A stretch of 10,623 nucleotides of DNA from a bacterium (GTDB lineage: Bacteria > 4484-113 > JALSIF01): contig JALSIF010000279.1 of NCBI GenBank assembly GCA_026981635.1, positions 1 through 10,623 of the forward strand, in the 5' to 3' direction. Of this stretch, positions 1 through 10,527 are shown piece after piece. The position numbers and the translations under genes were made by a program. The stretch's first letter is position 1. Every line of letters starts with the position of its first letter. Under the pieces are notes generated by a model. That model had not been told where the DNA came from and searched no databases. It saw nothing but the letters and a program-made list of their open reading frames with translations.

Positions 1-631
1 CCTAAGCCCCCTCTATGTGGACCCGCCGCGAAACATCCCTCCCCCCGACTTCGCCTTGGGTAGGCACCTCACCGGTTCCACCAAGCTTCGCCCCTACCTT
101 CTCTACGTGGGCTCCTCCGCCCCTCGCAAGCACCTTCCCCTGCTGGTTGACGCCTTCCTGGAGCTTCACCTCAGGGGCGAGTTTGACGGCTGGTTGGTGC
201 TGGCAGGAGCAACACTCCCCCCGCCCGAGATCCGCTCCGCCCCCCACCGCCCCTACCGACCAAGGATGCTTACCGAGTGGCCGGTCCGCTCCCTGGGCTA
301 TGTGACTGAACAGGAGCTACTTTCCCTCTACGCCCACGCCGAGCTTTTGGTCCACCTGGGCCACCCCGAGGGATACGGCTACCCGGTGGCCGAGGCCCTT
401 GCCATGGGCCTGCCCTGCGTGGTCCCGCGGGGGAGCGCCCAGGCCGAGCTGGGCCCGGAGGGGGTGGTGGAGACAGAGCTGGAGCTTGAGGCGGTGGTGA
501 GCGCCCTTTCGGAGGCCCTCCGCCGAAGGAGTGAACTTGCCCTGGAGGCTGCCAGGGAGGGAAAGAGGCTCAGGGCACGCCAGCCGGGGGCCGAGCTGAG
601 AGCCATAATTGACCAGTTTCTTTCCGACTAG
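1..631 (+). CDS. GT4-family glycosyltransferase, 3' part only
   Basis: The reading frame is open from the left edge (codons from position 2) to TAG at 629-631, so only the C-terminal part, about 209 residues, is present and the true start lies outside. A GTG at 17 is an internal codon, not a credible start. The fragment looks like the nucleotide-sugar-binding half of a retaining GT-B enzyme. It starts this domain with LLYVGSSAPRKHLPLLVDAF (strand, glycine loop, basic residues). It later has the family E-x7-E signature in HPEGYGYPVAEALAMG, where the two glutamates contact the donor sugar nucleotide. YVTEQELLSLYAHAELLVH is the usual helix before that signature. Such enzymes move a sugar from a nucleotide donor onto a lipid, glycan or small acceptor in the cytoplasm. 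The substrate cannot be told. I see no BshA-specific feature, although BshA is also GT4. The Nfu-like gene follows after about 58 bases on the same strand. Confidence 0.88.
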   Translation, partial: LSPLYVDPPRNIPPPDFALGRHLTGSTKLRPYLLYVGSSAPRKHLPLLVDAFLELHLRGEFDGWLVLAGATLPPPEIRSAPHRPYRPRMLTEWPVRSLGYVTEQELLSLYAHAELLVHLGHPEGYGYPVAEALAMGLPCVVPRGSAQAELGPEGVVETELELEAVVSALSEALRRRSELALEAAREGKRLRARQPGAELRAIIDQFLSD

Positions 632-689
632 GCCTCTGCCGGCAGATTTAGCTGTATTTCCCCACCCGGTAGGTAGAATTTCCTTGCTG

Positions 690-1229
690 ATGGACTTTAA
701 GGGCTACGACATAGAGACCCTGGCGGAGATGCTTGAGCGGGGAGAGCTAAAGCCCGCCGCCGAGGGAGAGAGCAAGAAGGCTCCCTCCGAGCCTGCGCCG
801 GTGGCCACCGCCGACCTCCCTTCCCGCCAAGAGCTGGACCAGGTGGAGCTCCCCCCGCCTCCCTCCCAGACCACTGACCACTACGAGGAAAGCGCTGCCC
901 AACCGGAGAAGGTCTGTCCCACTCCCACGCCAGCCAAGGAGGAATCCTGCCCGGGGGACGAGTATGTGGTGGAGCTTCCCGACGAGGAGTGGAAGCAGCG
1001 GGTGGCCGAGGTGGTGGAGAAGCTCCGCCCCTTCATCCAGTTTGACGGCGGCGACATTGAAATCGTGGAGTACTGCCGCCCCAACATCAAGGTAAAGCTG
1101 CTCGGTGCCTGCATCGGCTGCCCCAGCTCGGTGGTCACCCTGAAGTGGTCCCTGGAGCAGGCCCTGCGTGACGAGGTGCCGGGCTTCGGGGAGATCATTG
1201 AGGTTGACCAGCTGGCCGACCTGATCTAG
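690..1229 (+). CDS. Nfu / NifU C-terminal domain protein with long N-terminal extension
   Basis: The C-terminal half (residues about 102-179 of 179) is an Nfu domain: VVEKLRPFIQFDGGDIEIVE followed by GACIGCPSS, with the C-x2-C pair at Cys141 and Cys144. In this family the two cysteines hold a [4Fe-4S] cluster at a dimer interface and pass it to client apoproteins. Residues 1-100 differ from usual Nfu proteins. A short helix (MDFKGYDIETLAEMLERGEL) leads into a Pro/Glu-rich, probably disordered stretch with extra cysteines at 76 and 87. I chose ATG at 690 because the residues before it look non-coding. A TTG at 684 sits at better distance from the weak AGGTAG (671-676) and would add two residues. 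An open frame from TTG 609 would overlap the glycosyltransferase and is unlikely. A strong terminator lies 61 bases after the stop, so this gene probably ends the transcript. Domain call firm; client proteins unknown. Confidence 0.9.
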   Translation: MDFKGYDIETLAEMLERGELKPAAEGESKKAPSEPAPVATADLPSRQELDQVELPPPPSQTTDHYEESAAQPEKVCPTPTPAKEESCPGDEYVVELPDEEWKQRVAEVVEKLRPFIQFDGGDIEIVEYCRPNIKVKLLGACIGCPSSVVTLKWSLEQALRDEVPGFGEIIEVDQLADLI

Positions 1230-1462: not shown

Positions 1463-1636
1463 CATTCGGCTCTTTTTGCAGGTAGCTCCGCTTCCATCCC
1501 TGATCTAGGTTGAGACTGGCACATAACTGGCCGGTCACCTTGAAATGGCTGTCAACCGGATATCTACTTGGCTGCTGAACTCCGATAACCTCCTCACATC
1601 CTGAGACGGAAGTGCTCGGGAGGAACACTCTCCAAA

Positions 1637-1643
1637 AAGGAGG
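1637..1643 (+). promoter_or_regulatory. ribosome binding site fixing the lipoprotein start
   Basis: AAGGAGG lies seven bases before ATG 1651. It decides the start over the in-frame GTG at 1612, which would place 13 residues before an otherwise ideal lipoprotein signal peptide. Confidence 0.9.
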
Positions 1644-1650
1644 AGCAAAG

Positions 1651-3474
1651 ATGACTGGACTAAATATCAGGAACCTGAGTGCACTGGCACTCTCCCTACT
1701 GTTCGTGCTGGTCGCCGCCTGTGGTGGTGGCGGTGGTGGGGGTGGAGCCGGAACCCCCGCACCCGGTCCCACCCCCCAGGCCGGCGGAACGGTCTCCGGC
1801 CAGATCCTGGGTGATCCCGCCGACGCCGACCTGTTCGGTTCCCGGGCCACCGCCCAGGCCGGAATCGGGAATCTGGTCGGTATTCCGGGCATAGAGGTCC
1901 GGGTGGAAAGCGAGGCGGGCGACGACCTCGGCGGGGACATCACCGACGACAGCGGCAACTTCCGCATTGACGATGTGCCCCCGGGCAATGTGCGGGTGAA
2001 GCTGCGCATTCGTACCCAGCTTGACTTCAACGGTGACGGCACCCCCGACGAGGTGGAGATCAAGATCCTGGCCAGCGTAAGCCAGGACCAGATCACCCAG
2101 CTCATTGAGCAGATCGGTCTCATTGACCTGGATGGGGACGGCCAGCCGGACGGCATCCTTCTGCGGGGAACAGTGGTGGACAACGGCCAGCAGCGTGAAC
2201 ACACCATGGGCTTTGATCCTTCCACCAACCAGACCTTTTCTGACACTAACGGAAATGGGGTGGTAGATGTAGATGACGCAAGCTTTGAGGACAATGACCT
2301 TGATGGAGTACCCGATGACCTTACCTCTCAATCTGAGGTGGAGGTTAAGGGTACAGTTGATTCCCTTGATGACCAGCAGATTGTAGTGGGGGGGATAAGT
2401 TTTCTACTTTCACCAACCACCCTGTGGCTTGACGACCATGGCATGGCTACCAGCAGAGATTATTTTGCTGCCGGCAGCTGTGTGGAGGTCAAGGGTTATC
2501 GTCAGGATGAGGACCTGCTGGCAGTCAGGGTTAAGGCCGAGGATGACTGCTCTCTGCTCGGAATTGAGGAGGAGGAGGTAGAGCTTGAGGGCACCATTGA
2601 TTCCATTGACGAAACCCAGATCACTGTCCGAGGGGTAACCTTCTCCCTTTCTCCCGATACCATCTGCTTTGACGAGAACCAAGTTGAGATCCCTTGCATC
2701 GATCTGTCCCCAGGGGACTTTGTTGAGGTAAAGGGCGTCTTCTCACCGCAGGGGCTGATAGCGGAAGAGGTTAAGCTTGATGACCTCTCACCCGATGCAC
2801 ATGAGGATGATGTGGACCATGGTCAAGGGATTGAGTTTGAGGGGGTGGTTGACGAAGTCGGGGATGGAACCGTTACGGTTGGTGGGCAGATTTGGGACAC
2901 GACCCAGGCCCAGTGCTACATGGATGATGGAAGCTCCATTGACTGCTCAGAGATCCAGCCTGGGATGCTGGTGGAGATAGAGGGCTATCAAGCTGAGGAT
3001 GGGGCTTTGGTTGCCACTGAGGTTGAGGTGGAGGAAGAACTGGCAGGAGATGAGCACCAAAACGGTGACGGTGATGAGGCCGGTCGGCAAGATGGCGATG
3101 GCGATGATGAAGGCCAGGACGAGGAAGTAGGAGAGGACGAGCATGATAACGATAACCAAGCTGGCGACGGCAACGCCGGGGAAGGCGTTGATGATGGAGC
3201 TGAGGAGAATGACGGTATGGCCGACGATGGGGCAGAGGAGCATGAAGATGGCGTAAGTGGCGAGGGTGATGATGGTCAGGAAGGGGGAGATGAGGGGCTG
3301 AACGAAGACGGGGATCTTGGCGATGACGGAAACGGAGGTAGTCCAGATCAAGGAACTGATCAGGACCAGACCGGTGGTGATGACGGCTCTTCCAACCAGG
3401 AGGAACAAGACCAGGAAGGTGAGCAGGAGCAGAGTGAAGACGAAGGTGAAGAAGAGGGGGAGCAAAACCGCTAG
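1651..3474 (+). CDS. predicted secreted lipoprotein with DUF5666-like repeats and acidic tail
   Basis: The protein has 607 residues. Residues 1-24 are a lipoprotein signal peptide: a hydrophobic segment ending LVLVAAC, with predicted cleavage before Cys24, then eight glycines and a Pro-rich linker. Residues about 47-120 resemble a carboxypeptidase-regulatory/Cna-B-like beta-sandwich (GTVSGQI, then DDSGNFRIDDVPPGNVRV). Asp-rich loops of EF-hand or thrombospondin-3 type follow: DFNGDGTPD (125-133), DLDGDGQPD (159-167), and DTNGNGVVDVDD with DNDLDGVPDD (198-223). They suggest calcium binding. Three repeats of about 70 residues (229-300, 309-378, 394-463) share G-x-[IV]-D, a central T-V-x-G and V-E-[VI]-x-G and look like DUF5666. 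Repeats 2 and 3 each carry C-x9-C (339/349, 422/432). Residues 464-607 are an Asp/Glu/Gly/Gln/Asn tail with almost no basic residues. Codon choice changes near 2215. It is probably a single-gene unit. Surface location is well supported; function unknown. Confidence 0.85.
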   Translation: MTGLNIRNLSALALSLLFVLVAACGGGGGGGGAGTPAPGPTPQAGGTVSGQILGDPADADLFGSRATAQAGIGNLVGIPGIEVRVESEAGDDLGGDITDDSGNFRIDDVPPGNVRVKLRIRTQLDFNGDGTPDEVEIKILASVSQDQITQLIEQIGLIDLDGDGQPDGILLRGTVVDNGQQREHTMGFDPSTNQTFSDTNGNGVVDVDDASFEDNDLDGVPDDLTSQSEVEVKGTVDSLDDQQIVVGGISFLLSPTTLWLDDHGMATSRDYFAAGSCVEVKGYRQDEDLLAVRVKAEDDCSLLGIEEEEVELEGTIDSIDETQITVRGVTFSLSPDTICFDENQVEIPCIDLSPGDFVEVKGVFSPQGLIAEEVKLDDLSPDAHEDDVDHGQGIEFEGVVDEVGDGTVTVGGQIWDTTQAQCYMDDGSSIDCSEIQPGMLVEIEGYQAEDGALVATEVEVEEELAGDEHQNGDGDEAGRQDGDGDDEGQDEEVGEDEHDNDNQAGDGNAGEGVDDGAEENDGMADDGAEEHEDGVSGEGDDGQEGGDEGLNEDGDLGDDGNGGSPDQGTDQDQTGGDDGSSNQEEQDQEGEQEQSEDEGEEEGEQNR

Positions 3475-3561: not shown

Positions 3562-4404
3562 CTACATCATAAATTGCTTAACTCTGTACGCTTCGCGGAG
3601 GCTCTCCTCCACGCTAGCCCGATCTCCTCGGTGCTCCTGAATAATCAAAAAAAAGTGGTTGTTTTTTTTAAGAGCTGAGAGGCAGCGCTCAATCCAAGGG
3701 TTGCTGACTAGAGCTAAGTGGTGGGAGTCGCTTTCTCCCCCATTATCCTGCAGGTGACAGGCCACCGCGCGGGGAGCATAGGCGATAAGCTTCTCCTCTC
3801 GCCTGGGGTCTAGGCGCAGGTGGCCGGTGTCAAGACAGAGAACCGCCTCATCGCCCAGCTCCTCCACCACCTTCTCCACCAGCCTCTCCCGGGGCTGGTT
3901 GCCGGGCAGGTTCTCCATCGCCAGCACCACCCCCGGGAAGCTCTCCCGCACCTTTTCATTTAGCTCCCGCCAGCTCTCCACTCCCACCCGGATCCGCAGG
4001 CTGAGGTCGGATAAATCCGTTTCCCTTACCTCGGTAAGGTGAACCACCTGAACCAGTCTTCCCCCGGGAACCAACCCCTCATCCACCAGCAGGTGGGCAA
4101 ACTGGGCGGCGGTGAGGTGGCTCTGTATGGTCATAGTCCGGGTTTCCCGATCGGGCGAGGTGAGGTCAAAGTGAGCCTCAATGGGCGAGTGGATGGAAGC
4201 TACCGGCACCCGGTGCTCCTTCAGGTAGGCGATGATGTGGGGCCAGCTCTCCCTCTCCATCCAGGGGTTGTGGACGGTGGGGTGGCCAAGGCTTACTGCG
4301 TCATAGCGAAAGCCGGCCGGACCCTCCCACTCCATATACTCGGCCCCCGCTTCCCACCCTGGGGTGAAGTAGCTGAAGTAGGTGGAGAGGGTGATCAGCC
4401 TCAC
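3562..4404 (-). CDS. sugar phosphate isomerase/epimerase-like TIM-barrel protein
   Basis: At 280 residues it fits the xylose-isomerase-like / AP-endonuclease-2-like TIM-barrel family. Strand-end motifs appear in order: SIHSP (70-74), VVHL (120-123), AMENLPG (162-168), CLDTGHL (190-196), ACHLQDNGGESDSHHL (215-230) and IIQEHR (254-259). Glu164, Asp192, His217 and Glu257 are in the usual metal-ligand positions, with His195 and His228 close by. Members isomerise or epimerise sugars, handle inositols, or cut abasic DNA, and the sequence does not tell which. The GTG start lies one base after the bshC stop (TAA-G-GTG), so translation is probably coupled and no separate ribosome site is needed. Near the C-terminus the coding strand has A8 and T8 runs seven bases apart, odd for a GC-rich genome. 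A slip there would lose Glu257. It is the last gene of the operon. Confidence 0.82.
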   Translation of the reverse strand: MRLITLSTYFSYFTPGWEAGAEYMEWEGPAGFRYDAVSLGHPTVHNPWMERESWPHIIAYLKEHRVPVASIHSPIEAHFDLTSPDRETRTMTIQSHLTAAQFAHLLVDEGLVPGGRLVQVVHLTEVRETDLSDLSLRIRVGVESWRELNEKVRESFPGVVLAMENLPGNQPRERLVEKVVEELGDEAVLCLDTGHLRLDPRREEKLIAYAPRAVACHLQDNGGESDSHHLALVSNPWIERCLSALKKNNHFFLIIQEHRGDRASVEESLREAYRVKQFMM

Positions 4405-4405
4405 C

Positions 4406-6085
4406 TTAGGATGCCTCGCTGAGGCTGACCGGCTGGGTGTGGGGAACCACCGTCAGGCAGACCGTCCCGTAGCGGCCCGCCATGGATTCCCTGAGTCGCT
4501 CCAGGGTTGTCTCAAACCCAAACCGGCCCAGCAGCCAGAGCCAGCTCACTCTACGCTCCATAAAATCTCCCTCCGGGCGGACCCAGCCCATTATGCGCTC
4601 CACCCACTCTCGCTTGGGCCCCATTCTCCTCAGGGCCTCGCGATGGATCTTCTTGGCTATTTTTTCCAGCACGCCCCTCGCCTTGGCCAAGCGTGCCTCG
4701 GCCGACCGGGCCAGGGAGGGGTCCCACTCCATCAGCTCGTCCCTCAGCCGCTCATATCCCCTCTCCAGCGCCCCTTCCAGCTCCCTGAGGGCGGCCATCA
4801 CCCCTTCCGGCACCACCTGCCTGGCCTCTTCGCCCAACCAGTCCTCCGCCCCGTCGCAGGGAAGGCGCAGAGGGATGTCAAGTTCCCTCCAGCGGCGGGC
4901 CATCTCATCGCTGATCAACAGCGCCATGGGCCGGGGGAGCACCACCGGCATGCGGAGACCGAACTCCCCGAAAATAACCTCTGCCTGTGCCCAGTAGGCC
5001 ACCTCTGCCGGCCCCGCCACCAGCATGGCCAGGGGGATGGCCCTGCACTGGTAGACCGGTTTCAGCAGTGCGCTGGGTGAAAAGCGCTCCCCCTCCTCCT
5101 CAATCATCTGGATAAGCTCCACCGGTTCAAAGCGCCGTCCCGAATATTTGAGCACGAAGCTCCCGTCGCTTTCCCTGAGGAGCTTCTCCCGTCCCACCTC
5201 GCTGTGCAGGAAAACCAGCGTCTCCCCGGGCAGCACCGCAACCTGCTCATGGAAGCCGAGCCGTTTGAGCAGGCGGCTGCGGGCTAGGAGCTTCTCCTCC
5301 AGATCGGCGTGGTGGTGGATCACATGGAGGATGGTCTCTCGGTTTAGACGGGAGAAGAGTGGGGTGGAGGCGGGAACTACCACCAGCCCCTGCTCTCCCA
5401 GCACCCTGAGCATGAGCCGGGCAAAGGCCCCGCTGAAGGTAAAGCCCGGCTGATAGCACTCTGCTAGCAGTTCATAGACCCGCCTAGCGTCAACCCCCCC
5501 ATCGCGCAGGCTGGACACCAATCGGTCGGCTATCCCCCGCACCTCCCCGTTGAGCTCTATCTCCCGTACCGGCCTCAGCCCCGCCCCCTGGACGGTGGTG
5601 TGCTGGAGCCGGTCAAGGCCCCCCTCGTGGGGGATCTCCACTGCCCGCACCTCCTCAAAGTCGTGGTCCCAGTCGGGCATCCAGAAGATGGGAATAGTGG
5701 GCCGGCCGGTGATCTTCTCCACCCTTTCCGCCCAGTCCAGCACCGCCAGCGCCTTGCTCAGCACCATGAGCGGTCCTCCGAAAAGGGTGGTCTGCTGGCC
5801 GGCCGCCACCACCAGGGAACCTGGCTCGGCTAGGCGCCGCAGGTTTTCCAGGGAGGCGGGTGGGGCTCCTGCCCAGATGAGAAACTTCTCCATTGACTCA
5901 CTTAGCCGCTTGCGGGGGTGCCCCTGGCGGTCAATCTCCTCTGCTCGGGCTAGCAGGGAGGAGGCCAGCCGATCGCCCAGCTGGTGGTGGAAGAACTGGC
6001 TGGCCGAGGGCTCGCCGGCTTGGTAGTTGCTGAGCAGCTTGCTGGAAAGACCGAAGCAGTCGGGGTCTATGGTCTCGGGCAGCAT
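4406..6085 (-). CDS. bshC: BshC, putative bacillithiol-synthesis cysteine ligase
   Basis: The protein has 559 residues, close to the family's usual 530-550. Two signatures identify BshC: VVAAGQQTTLFGGPL (92-106), a Rossmann-like nucleotide-binding loop, and FWMPDWDHDFEEV (134-146). The C-terminal third is rich in Glu, Arg and Leu and ends with a probable coiled coil (EKIAKKIHREALRRM region) and an RRVSWLWLLGRFG block. BshC is the enzyme proposed to join cysteine to glucosaminyl-malate, the last step of bacillithiol synthesis in the cytoplasm. I chose ATG 6085 because GTGGGG lies nine bases upstream and the ubiX stop is two bases away. A GTG at 6100 would add five residues and overlap ubiX by 13 bases. 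From memory the family has Glu before Asp-His-Asp, where this protein has Trp139. bshA and bshB are not in the window. Confidence 0.93.
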   Translation of the reverse strand: MLPETIDPDCFGLSSKLLSNYQAGEPSASQFFHHQLGDRLASSLLARAEEIDRQGHPRKRLSESMEKFLIWAGAPPASLENLRRLAEPGSLVVAAGQQTTLFGGPLMVLSKALAVLDWAERVEKITGRPTIPIFWMPDWDHDFEEVRAVEIPHEGGLDRLQHTTVQGAGLRPVREIELNGEVRGIADRLVSSLRDGGVDARRVYELLAECYQPGFTFSGAFARLMLRVLGEQGLVVVPASTPLFSRLNRETILHVIHHHADLEEKLLARSRLLKRLGFHEQVAVLPGETLVFLHSEVGREKLLRESDGSFVLKYSGRRFEPVELIQMIEEEGERFSPSALLKPVYQCRAIPLAMLVAGPAEVAYWAQAEVIFGEFGLRMPVVLPRPMALLISDEMARRWRELDIPLRLPCDGAEDWLGEEARQVVPEGVMAALRELEGALERGYERLRDELMEWDPSLARSAEARLAKARGVLEKIAKKIHREALRRMGPKREWVERIMGWVRPEGDFMERRVSWLWLLGRFGFETTLERLRESMAGRYGTVCLTVVPHTQPVSLSEAS

Positions 6086-6087
6086 CT

Positions 6088-6708
6088 TTAGTAGCCCCAC
6101 CTGCGGTAAAGCTGGTGCTCAATGGCCATCAGATCAAGCACTTTGCCAACGATGAAGTCTACCATCGCCCGGCTGCTCTCCTCCGGTTGGTGATAGAAGG
6201 TGAGCACTGGCGGCAGGATCACACCCCCTGCACGGGCCACCCTGACCATGTTTTCAAGGTGGATGAGAGAGAGTGGGGCCTCGCGGGGAACCAGCACCAG
6301 CAGCCCCCTCTCTTTTAGCACTACATCGGCCGCCCGCTCCAGCAGGTTGTCGCTCATCCCGTTGGCGATGGCGGCAAGGGTGCCCATGGAGCAGGGAGCA
6401 ACCACCATCTTCCGCACCCCGAAGCTTCCGCTGGAAATGGGCGCCCCCAGGTCGTCCTCCCGGTGGTGCTGCCAGGCGACGGCCCTGATCTCGCTGATGC
6501 CCAACCGCTCCCGGAGCCGGCTGAGGTCATCCAGTTCCAGCCCAAACTCGTTTCGGGCCACCTGCCGGGCTCCCTCCGTAAAGACGGTGTGCAGTTCCAC
6601 TCCCGGTGTGGAGAGGAGCACCTCAAGCAGCCTCAGGCCCACCGGCAGGGCGGATGAGCCGCTCAGACCCAGGACAATGCGTTCGGTCTCCCTGGCGGGC
6701 TGGGCCAT
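6088..6708 (-). CDS. ubiX: UbiX-family flavin prenyltransferase homologue
   Basis: Length (206 residues) and motifs match UbiX/Pad1, which prenylates FMN to make the cofactor of UbiD-type decarboxylases. Visible motifs: APISSGSFGVRKMVVAPCSM (89-108), TLAAIANGMSDNLLERAADV (110-129), LVLVPREAPLS (137-147), IHLENM (149-154) and PPVLTFYH (166-173). Three sites differ from the usual pattern. The N-terminal FMN loop reads GLSGSSA (14-20), where GxSGASG is typical. Thr44 stands where Ser is usual. The late VGR-VLD motif has Lys189 in place of Arg and sits one residue further from Tyr172. Family membership is firm; normal activity is likely but not certain. No UbiD is in the window. The ATG is 17 bases after the SIR2-TPR stop; GGAG just after that stop is a weak, rather distant ribosome site. 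An in-frame TAG a few codons upstream excludes a longer start. Confidence 0.92.
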   Translation of the reverse strand: MAQPARETERIVLGLSGSSALPVGLRLLEVLLSTPGVELHTVFTEGARQVARNEFGLELDDLSRLRERLGISEIRAVAWQHHREDDLGAPISSGSFGVRKMVVAPCSMGTLAAIANGMSDNLLERAADVVLKERGLLVLVPREAPLSLIHLENMVRVARAGGVILPPVLTFYHQPEESSRAMVDFIVGKVLDLMAIEHQLYRRWGY

Positions 6709-6725: not shown

Positions 6726-9700
6726 TCATGCCCCTACCAGCTCCTTCACCTTGGGGTTGTGGAGTAGGGGCCTGAATATATCCTCCCGGAGGACCTCCTC
6801 CCGGTGGCTGGGGTTGAGCTCCAGGGCTCTCCTCAGCGCCTCGGCCACCCCCTCGGCGTCCCTCTGCCAGGCGCAGACATAGGCCAGGTGTAGCCAGAGC
6901 AGGTCGTTTTGGGGGAACTTCTCTATCGCCTCCTCAAAGGTCTCCCGCGCCTTCTTGAACTCCTTCATGTGCAGGTAGGCCAGTCCCTTGTTGTCCCAGG
7001 CGGCAACTGAGTTGGGGTCAAGCTCAATCACCTTGTTGAACATGTCAATCGCCTTGGCAAACTGCTCCAGCGCAGCCAGGTTGACTCCCCTGTTGAAGTA
7101 GGACTTGCTGTGGCTTTCGTCAAGCTTGATGGCTCGCTCGTAGCACTCGTTGGCCTTGAGCATCTCCCCCAGCGCGTCGTAGGCCAGCCCCTTCTGGAAC
7201 CAGAGCTCGGCATTCTCAAAGCGCCGGTCAAGGGCGGTATCCAGCACCTCAATCGCCTTGATGTAGAGCTGGCGGGCCTCCTCCTCTCGCCCGGCCCGTT
7301 CCTCCGGCGAGCCGGCCTTGCGCGCATCGGCTTCCTTCTCCTGGGCGAGCTTGTTGAGGGCGATTCCCATGTCCACCCAGATAAAGGTCTTCATCGGCTT
7401 GAGGTCAAGGGCCTTGCGGTATGCCTCAATCTCCTCCTGGTAGCGGCCCAGCTTGCCCAGCGCGCGTCCGTAGTCATACCAGGCCCGGTCGTCCTCAGAG
7501 TTCAGGTTTAGGTAGCGCTCCAGGTATTCGACCTGCTCCTGGAAGCGGCCCATCTTGCCAAGCAGGACTGACTTGCGGTACCAGACCAAGTCGCTGTCCT
7601 CGTTGAGGGCGAGGGATCGGTCGTAGGATTCCAGCGCCTCTTCCAGCCGTTCCAGACACTCAAGGGAGTAGGCCCGGTTGTACCACACCCGATAGTCGTC
7701 GTCCTTGATCTCCAGGAAGCGGTCAAAGAACTTCAGTGCCTGCTCAAACTCCTTGAGTTCATGCTCCGTCAGACCTAGGTTGTTGAGGCAGTCAAGGTCG
7801 TCGGGATGTTCCTCCAGGTAGGTCTCAAAGGCCACCTTGGCCTGCTCATGGCGGTCCTCATTGAGTAGGGCCACCCCCAGGTTGTAGATGGCCTCAAAGT
7901 CGTTGGTGTCAAGCTCCAGGGCACGCTGAAACATGTTCAGGGCTCTGTAGTCCTGTCCCAGCCTGCCCAGCAGACGGCCGGTGTTGAAGTAGGCCCCCTG
8001 CAGCTCCCTTGCCCGGGCCGACGACTCCTCAAAGGCTTTCATCGCCCGCAGGAACTCTCCCGCTTCGGTCAGGGCGATGCCCAGGTTGTACCAGGCCTTG
8101 ACGAAGCCCGACTGGGCGCCTACCGCCCGCTCGTAGCTCTGGATTTCCTCCCCCAGCTGGTCAAGGTCGCTTGCGGCCAGCCCCCGGTTGAACCACAGAT
8201 CGGCCCTTCCCGGCACGATCTCCAGCGCACGGTCATAGTCGCTCTTCTCCTCGGTGTGGCGGGAAAGCTTCTCGTGGCAGATGGCCCTCAGCCACCAGTA
8301 GCCCGCCCGTCGCTGGTCCACCCGCTGCCGGTCCTGCTTGATCTGCTGGCGCTTGGACTCCTCTTCATTTAGGCGGATGGCGTGGTCAAGCTCGCTTATT
8401 GCCTCCTCAAACTTGCCCAGCCGGTAGAGGCCGTAGGCCAGGCCGAGGCTTGAGTATTCGTTCTTGCCGAAGCGCTCCTCCACCACCCGGAAGCGGTCCA
8501 CCGCAGTAGAAAAGTCCTCGTCCAGCAGCAGGATGTAGCAGTGGATCAGTCCCTTGCGGTGCATCTCCCGCTGCTCGCGCTGCTTCTCCTCCTTCTTCAT
8601 GAAGATGCGCGACATCCCCGCCCGTTCAGGGACGAAGATCTCGTTGAAGTCCTCAATGAAGAAGCCCCGGTCCATTAGGTCGCTGGGACCGATATCGCGC
8701 AGGCTGGGGTAGACCCTTCCCTCACGGGGCTTCATCCCCCGGTAGGGCATCACGTTGAAGTAGTGGAAGGAGACCGAAAGCTCTTCCTCAATCTGGGGCA
8801 GGCCCAACCGGCGAGCCAGCTTCTCCATGAAGATGTCGGCGTCGCTGATCTGGAAGATGCGGAAATACTTGCCGTGGAAGTCGCCGGTGCTGATGAGCCT
8901 AACGGCGATGTCAGAAATATCCTTCAGGTCCCCGTAGTGGGCCCAAAGCAGGCCCTCGGAGAAGAACTCGTCGCTGTCCTCGGCGGCGTGCCTCAGCATG
9001 TAGAAGGCGGGCCACTCCTTGCCCGAATAGCCCACCACCACCAGTCCGTGGTGCTTGATCCGGTTGTCAAAAAGCTCAATGAAGTTGTCGTGGAGCTTGA
9101 CCGCCCCCTGGCGGAAGTAGCGCGGTTCATACTGGTCAAAGAAGCCGTAGAGGTGGACGATGTAGTTGTGGTCCTCGTCGTCCCTGATCAGCTTGACATC
9201 GTCGGGGTTTCTGATGGAGATGGCCGAGGTGCGGCGGATAAGGTAGAAAGACTTCTCCAGCAGGTCGTCAAAGTTGGTGGTCCAGATGAGAGGATTGATC
9301 TTTCTGTGCTTGATGGCGATGGTGAGATAGAAGTCGGCTGGCGAAGGGTCCTTGCCGTCCAGCAACTTCTCAAAGAACTCCTTTCTCAGGGTGCGGGAGG
9401 GGTACTCCTTCTCCAGGGCGGAGGCATAGGCATAGTCGGGGTTGAACCACTTCTGTCGGTGGAGCCACTCCTGCAGGTCGGCGGCGGTAACCTTCCCCCG
9501 CTTGTCCGGGTTGGTCTTTTCAAAAACCTTGACGGTGATCTCGTCAATCATCTCCTGGGCGAGGGGGACTCCGCTGGAAACGCTGAATCCCGCCCCCACC
9601 CAGAACTGCATCTTGGGCCCGCGCTGGGCGATGTATTCAATGGCTTCGTCTTCACTGATGACGAGCTCCTCAAGGACCTCCTTGCGCTCCTTGGGTTCTT

Positions 9701-9776
9701 CCCCCTCTTCGCGCCTGCGGTCCTTGCGGATGAGCTTTTCTAGTACCGACCCGGGGTCGGGTGGAGAGACCGTCAC
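6726..9776 (-). CDS. SIR2-like domain fused to about 16 tetratricopeptide repeats
   Basis: The protein has 1016 residues and no signal peptide or membrane segment, so it should be cytoplasmic. Residues 1-45 are charged and helical. Residues about 46-330 form a SIR2-like NAD-binding domain. It has FWVGAGFSVSSGVP (58-71, dinucleotide loop), LIWTTNFDDLLE (163-174, with Asn168 and Asp170), IVHLYG (206-211, His208 in the catalytic-His position) and LVVVGYSG (245-252). All key positions look intact, so NAD hydrolysis or deacylation is chemically possible. No four-cysteine zinc ribbon is seen, as in SIR2 NADases of defence systems and unlike classical sirtuins. Residues about 400-990 hold about 16 TPR units of 34 residues (pattern W-x2-x-G-x2-hydrophobic, A-x4-A, P-x). 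One is extended by a Glu/Arg-rich insert before ARQLYIKAIEVLD. The chain ends in a helical cap. It leads the four-gene operon. GTG 9776 is chosen from the ribosome site five bases upstream. Confidence 0.92.
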   Translation of the reverse strand: MTVSPPDPGSVLEKLIRKDRRREEGEEPKERKEVLEELVISEDEAIEYIAQRGPKMQFWVGAGFSVSSGVPLAQEMIDEITVKVFEKTNPDKRGKVTAADLQEWLHRQKWFNPDYAYASALEKEYPSRTLRKEFFEKLLDGKDPSPADFYLTIAIKHRKINPLIWTTNFDDLLEKSFYLIRRTSAISIRNPDDVKLIRDDEDHNYIVHLYGFFDQYEPRYFRQGAVKLHDNFIELFDNRIKHHGLVVVGYSGKEWPAFYMLRHAAEDSDEFFSEGLLWAHYGDLKDISDIAVRLISTGDFHGKYFRIFQISDADIFMEKLARRLGLPQIEEELSVSFHYFNVMPYRGMKPREGRVYPSLRDIGPSDLMDRGFFIEDFNEIFVPERAGMSRIFMKKEEKQREQREMHRKGLIHCYILLLDEDFSTAVDRFRVVEERFGKNEYSSLGLAYGLYRLGKFEEAISELDHAIRLNEEESKRQQIKQDRQRVDQRRAGYWWLRAICHEKLSRHTEEKSDYDRALEIVPGRADLWFNRGLAASDLDQLGEEIQSYERAVGAQSGFVKAWYNLGIALTEAGEFLRAMKAFEESSARARELQGAYFNTGRLLGRLGQDYRALNMFQRALELDTNDFEAIYNLGVALLNEDRHEQAKVAFETYLEEHPDDLDCLNNLGLTEHELKEFEQALKFFDRFLEIKDDDYRVWYNRAYSLECLERLEEALESYDRSLALNEDSDLVWYRKSVLLGKMGRFQEQVEYLERYLNLNSEDDRAWYDYGRALGKLGRYQEEIEAYRKALDLKPMKTFIWVDMGIALNKLAQEKEADARKAGSPEERAGREEEARQLYIKAIEVLDTALDRRFENAELWFQKGLAYDALGEMLKANECYERAIKLDESHSKSYFNRGVNLAALEQFAKAIDMFNKVIELDPNSVAAWDNKGLAYLHMKEFKKARETFEEAIEKFPQNDLLWLHLAYVCAWQRDAEGVAEALRRALELNPSHREEVLREDIFRPLLHNPKVKELVGA

Positions 9777-9894: not shown

Positions 9895-10527
9895 GTGAGG
9901 CTTGAGATCTCCAGCTTTGAATACACCGACCTCATGCGGGAGCACTTTCGCCGCCCCCGCAATGTGGTCTACTCCGATGTGGAGGAGTGGAACCGGCGGG
10001 CCAGCGGGCGGGGTTCCATCGGCTCCATGCTGATGGGCGACAGCCTGCGCATCTGGATCGTGGTGGAAAAGGATGCGGCGGGCGAGGAGCGCATCACCAA
10101 GTTGGTCTGGAAGAGCTATGGCAACCCCACCGTCGTCGCCGCCACCTCCCTCATGTCAGAGCTGGTTACAAGGGGAGGGGGGATGACCCTGGAGGAGGCC
10201 CTCGCCCTCACCGCCGAAGACCTCTGCGACCAGCTGGGGATCAACCGCTCCGCCGCCGGTGCCATCGTCTCCCACCTCGCCCTGCGGGACGCCATCCACG
10301 ACTACTTCCGCCGCACCGGCCAAAACCACCGCATCCGTGAGCGTCTGCCCCAGATCGTCTGTGACTGTTTGGGAGTGACCGACGAGGAGATTGAGGAGGA
10401 GGTGAAGAACGGAGCGATGGACTTTGATCTCCTCCAGCAGGCCACCGGCGTGGGGACCGGCTGCGGGGCATGCCATGAGCTGGTCTGCCAGCTGATAGAG
10501 GAGTATCTGGAGAAATACTTCTACTAG
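9895..10527 (+). CDS. NifU-like protein: degenerate IscU-type scaffold domain plus BFD-like [2Fe-2S] domain
   Basis: The protein has 210 residues. Residues 11-140 align with IscU/NifU N-terminal scaffolds: TDLMREHFRRPRNV (11-24) matches the family start, then MGD (47-49), a KSYGNP turn (73-78), TLEEALALTAEDL (98-110) and HLALRDAIHDYF (127-138). The three cysteines that build the cluster are all replaced, by Met47, Asn77 and Val125 in my alignment, although the neighbouring Asp49 is kept. Residues 154-205 are a bacterioferritin-associated-ferredoxin-like domain: VCDCLGVTDEEI (Cys156, Cys158) and GTGCGACHELVC (Cys190, Cys193, extra Cys198). This matches the central [2Fe-2S] domain of nitrogenase-type NifU. 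The C-terminal Nfu domain of full NifU is absent. The GTG start has no ribosome site; a TATAGA -10-like box at 9878-9883 would make the message nearly leaderless. ATG 9934 is an alternative but cuts into the conserved helix. It may be a cluster carrier or regulator, not a scaffold. Confidence 0.85.
   Translation: MRLEISSFEYTDLMREHFRRPRNVVYSDVEEWNRRASGRGSIGSMLMGDSLRIWIVVEKDAAGEERITKLVWKSYGNPTVVAATSLMSELVTRGGGMTLEEALALTAEDLCDQLGINRSAAGAIVSHLALRDAIHDYFRRTGQNHRIRERLPQIVCDCLGVTDEEIEEEVKNGAMDFDLLQQATGVGTGCGACHELVCQLIEEYLEKYFY

What the first reader, a model, noticed from the sequence alone, without database searches (positions are those of the whole stretch)
6726..9776. SIR2-TPR protein: candidate undescribed NAD-consuming effector with a long helical-repeat sensor
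Seen: SIR2 motifs are intact (GAGFSxxSG, TTNFD, His208 in VHLYG, VVGYSG), no zinc-ribbon cysteines are visible, and about 16 TPRs follow on the same chain. Known: anti-phage SIR2 proteins (ThsA, DSR1/DSR2, SIR2-APAZ with short Ago, SIR2-STAND) use this kind of SIR2 domain to hydrolyse NAD when a sensor part detects infection, and DSR2 also has a long helical array. Inference: the TPR array could be a ligand or protein sensor controlling NADase activity. The setting is unusual because the gene leads a metabolic operon and is not in a defence island. A regulatory or metabolic role is an equal possibility.
Basis: partly seen in the sequence, partly recalled or inferred. Interest (0 to 1): 0.68.

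Follow-up and report, generated by a model that had tools for sequence, protein, structure and literature searches.

The report
Phylum-wide SIR2-TPR core protein
A large protein that joins an NAD-using SIR2 domain, of the kind bacteria use as an anti-phage suicide enzyme, to a long helical-repeat arm is present and slowly evolving in every sampled genome of one obscure bacterial phylum, which looks like everyday cell machinery more than phage defence, and the copy in this window has lost the usual catalytic histidine.

Summary
The ORF is real: 1016 aa, a SIR2_2 domain (about residues 38-330), a linker and about 16 TPRs. One key reading is wrong. The catalytic His of the HG motif aligns with Tyr210 in this protein; His208 in "VHLYG" aligns with a Lys. 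All 9 orthologues and 12 distant homologues that I read have His there. Asn168, Asp170, GAGxS, GYSG and Glu254 are kept.

The window belongs to Candidatus Niteriota (GTDB 4484-113), identified by inference. An orthologue (37-40% identical end to end) is in 10 of 10 genomes of the phylum (4 families, 8 genera). Outside the phylum only weak, different SIR2 proteins turn up. The gene tracks RpoB, has dN/dS of 0.04-0.07 in two close pairs, and is more conserved than most of its neighbours. No orthologue was found on viral contigs. The closest solved fold is the SPARSA Sir2 (Z 24.6, against 16.7 for ThsA and about 14 for DSR2), but APAZ, Argonaute, STAND and SLOG parts are absent.

Best reading: a defence-type SIR2 turned into a vertically inherited cellular NAD-dependent switch on a TPR platform, probably catalytically altered in this lineage. 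This is a new variant of a known kind. No activity was tested.

The parts
6726..9776 (-). SIR2-TPR protein, 1016 aa, GTG start
   Evidence: full-length homologues in 9 other genomes of the phylum
8787..9665 (-). SIR2 domain, about residues 38-330; family signature KWFNPxYxYxSALEKEYP at residues about 109-126 is the best conserved stretch
   Evidence: PF13289; SIR2-APAZ models over residues 50-329; SPARSA Sir2; conservation profile
9267..9281 (-). TTNFD motif, residues 166-170 (Asn168, Asp170), kept in 10 of 10 orthologues
9141..9155 (-). HLYGF, residues 208-212: altered catalytic loop. Tyr210 stands where 9 of 9 orthologues have the catalytic His, Phe212 where most have Asp
9015..9032 (-). GYSGKE, residues 249-254, NAD-pocket motif
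   Evidence: Y226 of SPARSA Sir2 in GYSG is needed for activity (PMC10781750)
6813..8594 (-). about 16 TPR hairpins, residues about 395-988; well conserved spots GxLLGKxGQD and LLAxLEQFAKA
6088..6708 (-). UbiX flavin prenyltransferase, 17 bases after the SIR2-TPR stop; every genome of the phylum in which UbiX was found has it right behind SIR2-TPR (4 of 4)
4406..6100 (-). BshC, overlaps UbiX by 13 bases; same order in G002, and in G003 with an insertion
3562..4404 (-). xylose-isomerase-like TIM barrel (AP_endonuc_2), last gene of the run

Best explanation
A vertically inherited core protein of Ca. Niteriota, one copy per genome searched, in which a SPARSA-like SIR2 NAD domain has been taken into normal cell physiology. 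Shown by sequence: the architecture, the phylum-wide presence, the congruence with RpoB, the strong purifying selection on both halves, and the loss of the catalytic His in this one copy. Inferred: the TPR solenoid binds a conserved cellular partner and thereby gates the SIR2 domain, which in most members cleaves NAD+ to ADP-ribose and nicotinamide as a controlled signal or NAD setting, not as suicide. In the window's lineage the HGD loop has become YGF, so hydrolysis is probably lost or strongly changed and the protein probably acts through NAD binding and scaffolding.
For: Orthologue in 10/10 genomes of the phylum, 4 families, E 1e-101 or better, bit scores of 608-707 with the family profile against at most 116 for any SIR2 protein outside the phylum. 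Of 84,980 species genomes only members of this group were returned (pattern-limited), and no orthologue came from viral contigs. Trees of SIR2, TPR and RpoB recover the same families. dN/dS 0.04-0.07 for SIR2 and TPR alike in two close pairs. Identity between sister species 89-91% for this protein against 76% UbiX, 78% BshC, 69% RsmD, 71% RecX, 58% CinA-like. Neighbours are UbiX, BshC, RsmD, RecX, CinA-like, PTPS, not defence genes as a rule. SIR2 fold closest to SPARSA. Asn and His both needed for NAD hydrolysis in SPARSA (PMC10781750); in Avs5 His or Asn works at that position, Ala or Gln does not (PMC12931631).
Against: No activity, partner or phenotype is known. Being core does not exclude an immune role. 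Only 10 genomes of about 12 known species were searched. The His-to-Tyr change rests on one MAG, with no close relative to confirm it. Tyr at this position has not been tested in the papers that I read. The model of the SIR2 domain has low confidence in the active-site loop (pLDDT below 50 at residues 211-229).
Confidence: 0.5

Rival explanations
1. A fixed immune guardian: an abortive-infection NADase, TPRs as sensor of a phage product or of damage to a host process, kept by the whole phylum.
For: Closest relatives of the SIR2 domain are anti-phage effectors. Avs5 also couples SIR2 to C-terminal repeats thought to sense a phage protein (PMC12931631).
Against: Universal, vertical, slower evolving than most neighbours, low dN/dS in the would-be sensor, housekeeping neighbours. 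Loss of the catalytic His in one lineage would disarm it.
Confidence: 0.25
2. An NAD-binding scaffold or sensor without NADase activity in any member; the SIR2 pocket reads NAD and the TPR arm carries out the work.
For: NAD-pocket motifs are invariant while the catalytic His can be lost; the TPR arm is the larger part and is under the same constraint.
Against: Nine of ten members keep the full Asn-His pair, and the twelve distant homologues read have the His too.
Confidence: 0.18
3. A protein deacylase or ADP-ribosyl transfer enzyme recruited by TPRs to targets.
For: SIR2 superfamily members do these reactions (general knowledge of sirtuins).
Against: No zinc ribbon, no cysteine before residue 413; best matches are NADases, with Hst2 at Z 13.5 far behind SPARSA at 24.6.
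Confidence: 0.07

Closest known systems
SPARSA Sir2 (SIR2-APAZ with short pAgo; PDB 8in8, 8jkz)
   Same: SIR2 domain: profile match E 1.9e-21, VIA Z 24.6, rmsd 3.2 over 226 residues; TTNxD and GYSG motifs
   Different: No APAZ domain, no Argonaute neighbour; TPR array instead; HG motif is YG in the window copy
Avs5 (SIR2-STAND with C-terminal TPR/Sel1 repeats)
   Same: SIR2 at the N end, repeats at the C end; Avs5 also can depart from the HG motif (NG)
   Different: No STAND NTPase; many more TPRs; vertical core gene, not a patchy defence gene
DSR2 (SIR2 plus long helical array)
   Same: Size, N-terminal SIR2, C-terminal helical solenoid
   Different: SIR2 fold match much weaker than to SPARSA (Z about 14); no DSR2 family match found
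ThsA (Thoeris)
   Same: SIR2 NADase fold, Z 16.7; weak PADLOC match at TTNFD
   Different: No SLOG domain among the Pfam matches
FAM118A/B, vertebrate SIR2_2 proteins
   Same: SIR2 of the anti-phage kind kept by a whole lineage (PMC12700824)
   Different: No TPR array; FAM118A and B both keep His and Asn; Z 13.1

Membership tests
SIR2-like (PF13289, SIR2_2) | Profile match above the curated cut-off | tested here: met
   36.4 bits against 24.5; all 10 genomes above cut-off
SIR2 NADase effectors | Catalytic Asn (TTNxD) | tested here: met
   Asn168 and Asp170, 10 of 10
SIR2 NADase effectors | Catalytic His (HG motif) | tested here: not met
   Tyr210 in the window protein; met in the 9 orthologues
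SIR2 NADase effectors | NAD hydrolysis | not testable with these tools
   needs an assay
SPARSA (SIR2-APAZ / short pAgo) | APAZ domain after SIR2 | tested here: not met
   PADLOC SIR2-APAZ models match only residues 50-329, i.e. the SIR2 part of the models; TPRs follow
SPARSA (SIR2-APAZ / short pAgo) | Argonaute gene next door | tested here: not met
   window genes and the orthologues' scanned neighbours contain none
Avs5 (SIR2-STAND) | STAND NTPase between SIR2 and repeats | tested here: not met
   no NTPase family among the 25 best matches shown of 29; only a linker of about 65 residues lies between the SIR2 domain and the repeats
ThsA (Thoeris) | C-terminal SLOG domain | tested here: not met
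   TPRs occupy the C-terminal part
DSR2 | DSR2-type helical array and tail-tube recognition | tested here: inconclusive
   DSR2 chains appear in the fold search at Z about 14, mainly through the SIR2 part
Canonical sirtuin deacetylase | Zinc ribbon with four Cys | tested here: not met
   no Cys before residue 413
MamA (NF040959, above cut-off) | Short TPR-only magnetosome protein | tested here: not met
   242.9 bits is the sum of several stretches of a long TPR array on a SIR2 protein
Mobile anti-phage defence gene | Patchy presence, transfer, defence neighbours | tested here: not met
   10 of 10 genomes, congruent trees, mostly housekeeping neighbours

The most novel reading that the evidence does not exclude
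An anti-phage type SIR2 NADase has become a universal housekeeping NAD switch of a whole bacterial phylum, gated by a TPR platform, and one lineage has gone on to a Tyr-containing pseudo- or neo-enzyme.
Probability: 0.4. Interest if true: 0.75.

Novelty: new variant of a known kind. Interest (0 to 1): 0.55.

Why it matters
SIR2 NADases of this branch are known in bacteria mainly as patchy anti-phage effectors. A slowly evolving member kept by every sampled genome of a phylum suggests that such an effector can be turned to ordinary cell physiology in bacteria, a counterpart to FAM118 in vertebrates. The natural His-to-Tyr change offers a test of how much of the conserved function needs catalysis.

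Tried and rejected
First genome-contig scan with the window sequence alone found nothing; the alignment-based scan did. Scan of viral contigs found no orthologue. Plasmid search gave only 11 weak SIR2 family matches at 23-28% identity. The MamA match of NCBIfam is an effect of many TPRs. A link to the CinA-like gene next door in family f3 (COG1058 proteins can act on ADP-ribose, from general knowledge) looked tempting, but a convergent gene lies between the two, so I do not use it. About 930-aa SIR2 proteins in another bacterial family turned out to be SIR2-HATPase proteins without TPRs. Foldseek with the full-length model listed only TPR-type and other repeat proteins in its top 50, so the SIR2 part was folded alone from an orthologue. 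The RpoB identities printed for G004 came from a wrong frame and were replaced.

Full report
What is there. The minus-strand frame 6726-9776 codes for 1016 aa with a GTG start after GGAGGTGA and a TATAAT-like box further up (the consensus scan itself found no promoter). Pfam finds SIR2_2 at residues 163-284 and a long run of TPRs in the C-terminal part. The AlphaFold2 model (mean pLDDT 81) has a Rossmann-like N-terminal part with modest confidence and 32 paired helices from 395 to 987 with high confidence, about 16 TPR hairpins.

The active site was misread. Aligned with nine orthologues, the window's YIVHLYGFFD stands over YVVKxHGDxD. The catalytic His of the HG motif is Tyr210 here, the Asp after it is Phe212, and His208 falls on Lys. 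The column count is His in 9 of 9 orthologues and Tyr in the window. The twelve distant homologues whose sequences I read also have His at the motif. The Tyr codon is TAC, one base away from His, but two flanking positions changed too, so a sequencing error is a poor explanation. SPARSA loses NADase activity with H186A or N142A, and also with D144A or Y226A (PMC10781750). Avs5 naturally carries Asn in place of His and works with Asn or His, not with Ala or Gln (PMC12931631). So a changed HG motif does not prove a dead enzyme, but Tyr is untested in those papers. Asn168, Asp170, GAGxS, GY[S/A]G and Glu254 are all kept.

Where it comes from. Records that hold the orthologues are titled UBP7 HKST-UBA03 and Planctomycetales bacterium 4484_113, among others. 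The latter names the GTDB phylum 4484-113, Candidatus Niteriota, with 12 species and genomes of 1.54-4.11 Mb (PMC11382960). The ten genomes searched here span 1.5-4.0 Mb. The phylum name is therefore inferred, not printed by a tool.

Distribution. All ten genomes of the phylum held (four families, eight genera) carry one orthologue, 40-45% identical to the window in the first 400 residues and 37-40% over the full length. With a profile of that part, orthologues score 608-707 bits. In two samples of other genomes the best scores are 67 and 116 bits, and the proteins behind those that I looked at have other tails: about 600-aa proteins of SPARSA Sir2 size, SIR2-HATPase, and short SIR2-TPR proteins. 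The scan of one genome for each of 84,980 species gave only members of this group, with the caveat that it looks for two conserved peptides. No orthologue came from 2.9 million viral contigs, with the same caveat.

Evolution. Trees of the SIR2 half, the TPR half and RpoB all recover the families f2, f3 and f4, as expected for vertical descent. The window's branch is the longest end branch in all three trees. dN/dS is 0.04-0.07 in both halves for two close pairs (dS is near 1, so values are rough). Between sister species the protein is 89-91% identical, while UbiX is 76%, BshC 78%, RsmD 69%, RecX 71%, the poly(A) polymerase 63% and the CinA-like protein 58%; two other neighbours are as conserved. 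In the third pair it is 70% against 44-72% for the neighbours. This is not the picture of an arms-race gene, although a fixed guardian cannot be ruled out.

Neighbourhood. In the window the order is SIR2-TPR, UbiX (17 bases on), BshC (13-base overlap), TIM barrel. UbiX was found in only four of the ten genomes (families f1 and f2), and in all four it lies directly behind SIR2-TPR; UbiD occurs in the same four. BshC follows UbiX in the window and in G002 and, after an inserted DNA methylase-Mrr gene and small ORFs, in G003. In f3 the gene stands near RsmD, a convergent coiled-coil gene and a CinA-like gene; in f4 near a PTPS gene. So the gene is conserved without its operon, and the operon does not explain it.

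Fold and closest relatives. The SIR2 part of an orthologue matches SPARSA Sir2 with Z 24.6, ThsA with 16.7, Avs5, DSR2 and KomC with about 14, and Hst2 with 13.5. The profile search of PDB sequences also puts SPARSA first, at 79.6 bits against 30 for KomC. APAZ and Argonaute, STAND, SLOG and a zinc ribbon, the defining features of the named systems, are absent. It works like, or derives from, the SPARSA branch of SIR2, but it is not a SPARSA.

Mechanism. The best-supported reading is a cellular NAD-dependent switch: the TPR arm holds a conserved partner and controls the SIR2 pocket, and NAD cleavage is the output in most members. The window's lineage has changed the catalytic loop, so it probably works through binding or by altered chemistry. 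Architecture, distribution, vertical descent, constraint and the His-to-Tyr change are computed results; NAD binding, hydrolysis, gating and the partner are inference.

Noticed in passing
window 609-1229 (+) and 9895-10527 (+): Two NifU-related genes in one window: a C-terminal NifU domain protein and a NifU_N plus BFD [2Fe-2S] protein, as if NifU were split.
   Followed up: no
window 1612-3474 (+): Lipoprotein-like 620-aa protein with three DUF5666 stretches and a long Asp/Glu/Gly-rich tail.
   Followed up: no
window 3562-4404 (-): TIM-barrel protein with a sub-threshold match to the cobamide remodelling enzyme CbiR (39 bits against 105).
   Followed up: no
L020:6160-8004 (+): DNA methylase-Mrr fusion inserted between UbiX and BshC in G003 only; a HSDR_N protein lies upstream of SIR2-TPR in the same contig.
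   Followed up: partly
L022:8358-10556 (-): A second, distant SIR2-TPR protein (732 aa, catalytic His kept) in G004 only; looks like an ordinary patchy SIR2 effector.
   Followed up: partly
L062:2796-5579 (+), L064:5335-8136 (+): Patchy about 930-aa SIR2 plus HATPase_c_4 proteins in a family of another lineage (f42): candidate SIR2 effector with an ATPase-like module.
   Followed up: partly
ten Niteriota genomes (G000-G009): UbiX and UbiD occur together only in families f1 and f2 and were not found in f3 and f4.
   Followed up: partly
L016:6400-7266 (+), L017:13182-13952 (-): Unnamed helical protein with a likely N-terminal membrane helix, convergent with SIR2-TPR in all four f3 genomes; the one copy scanned has no Pfam match.
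   Followed up: partly
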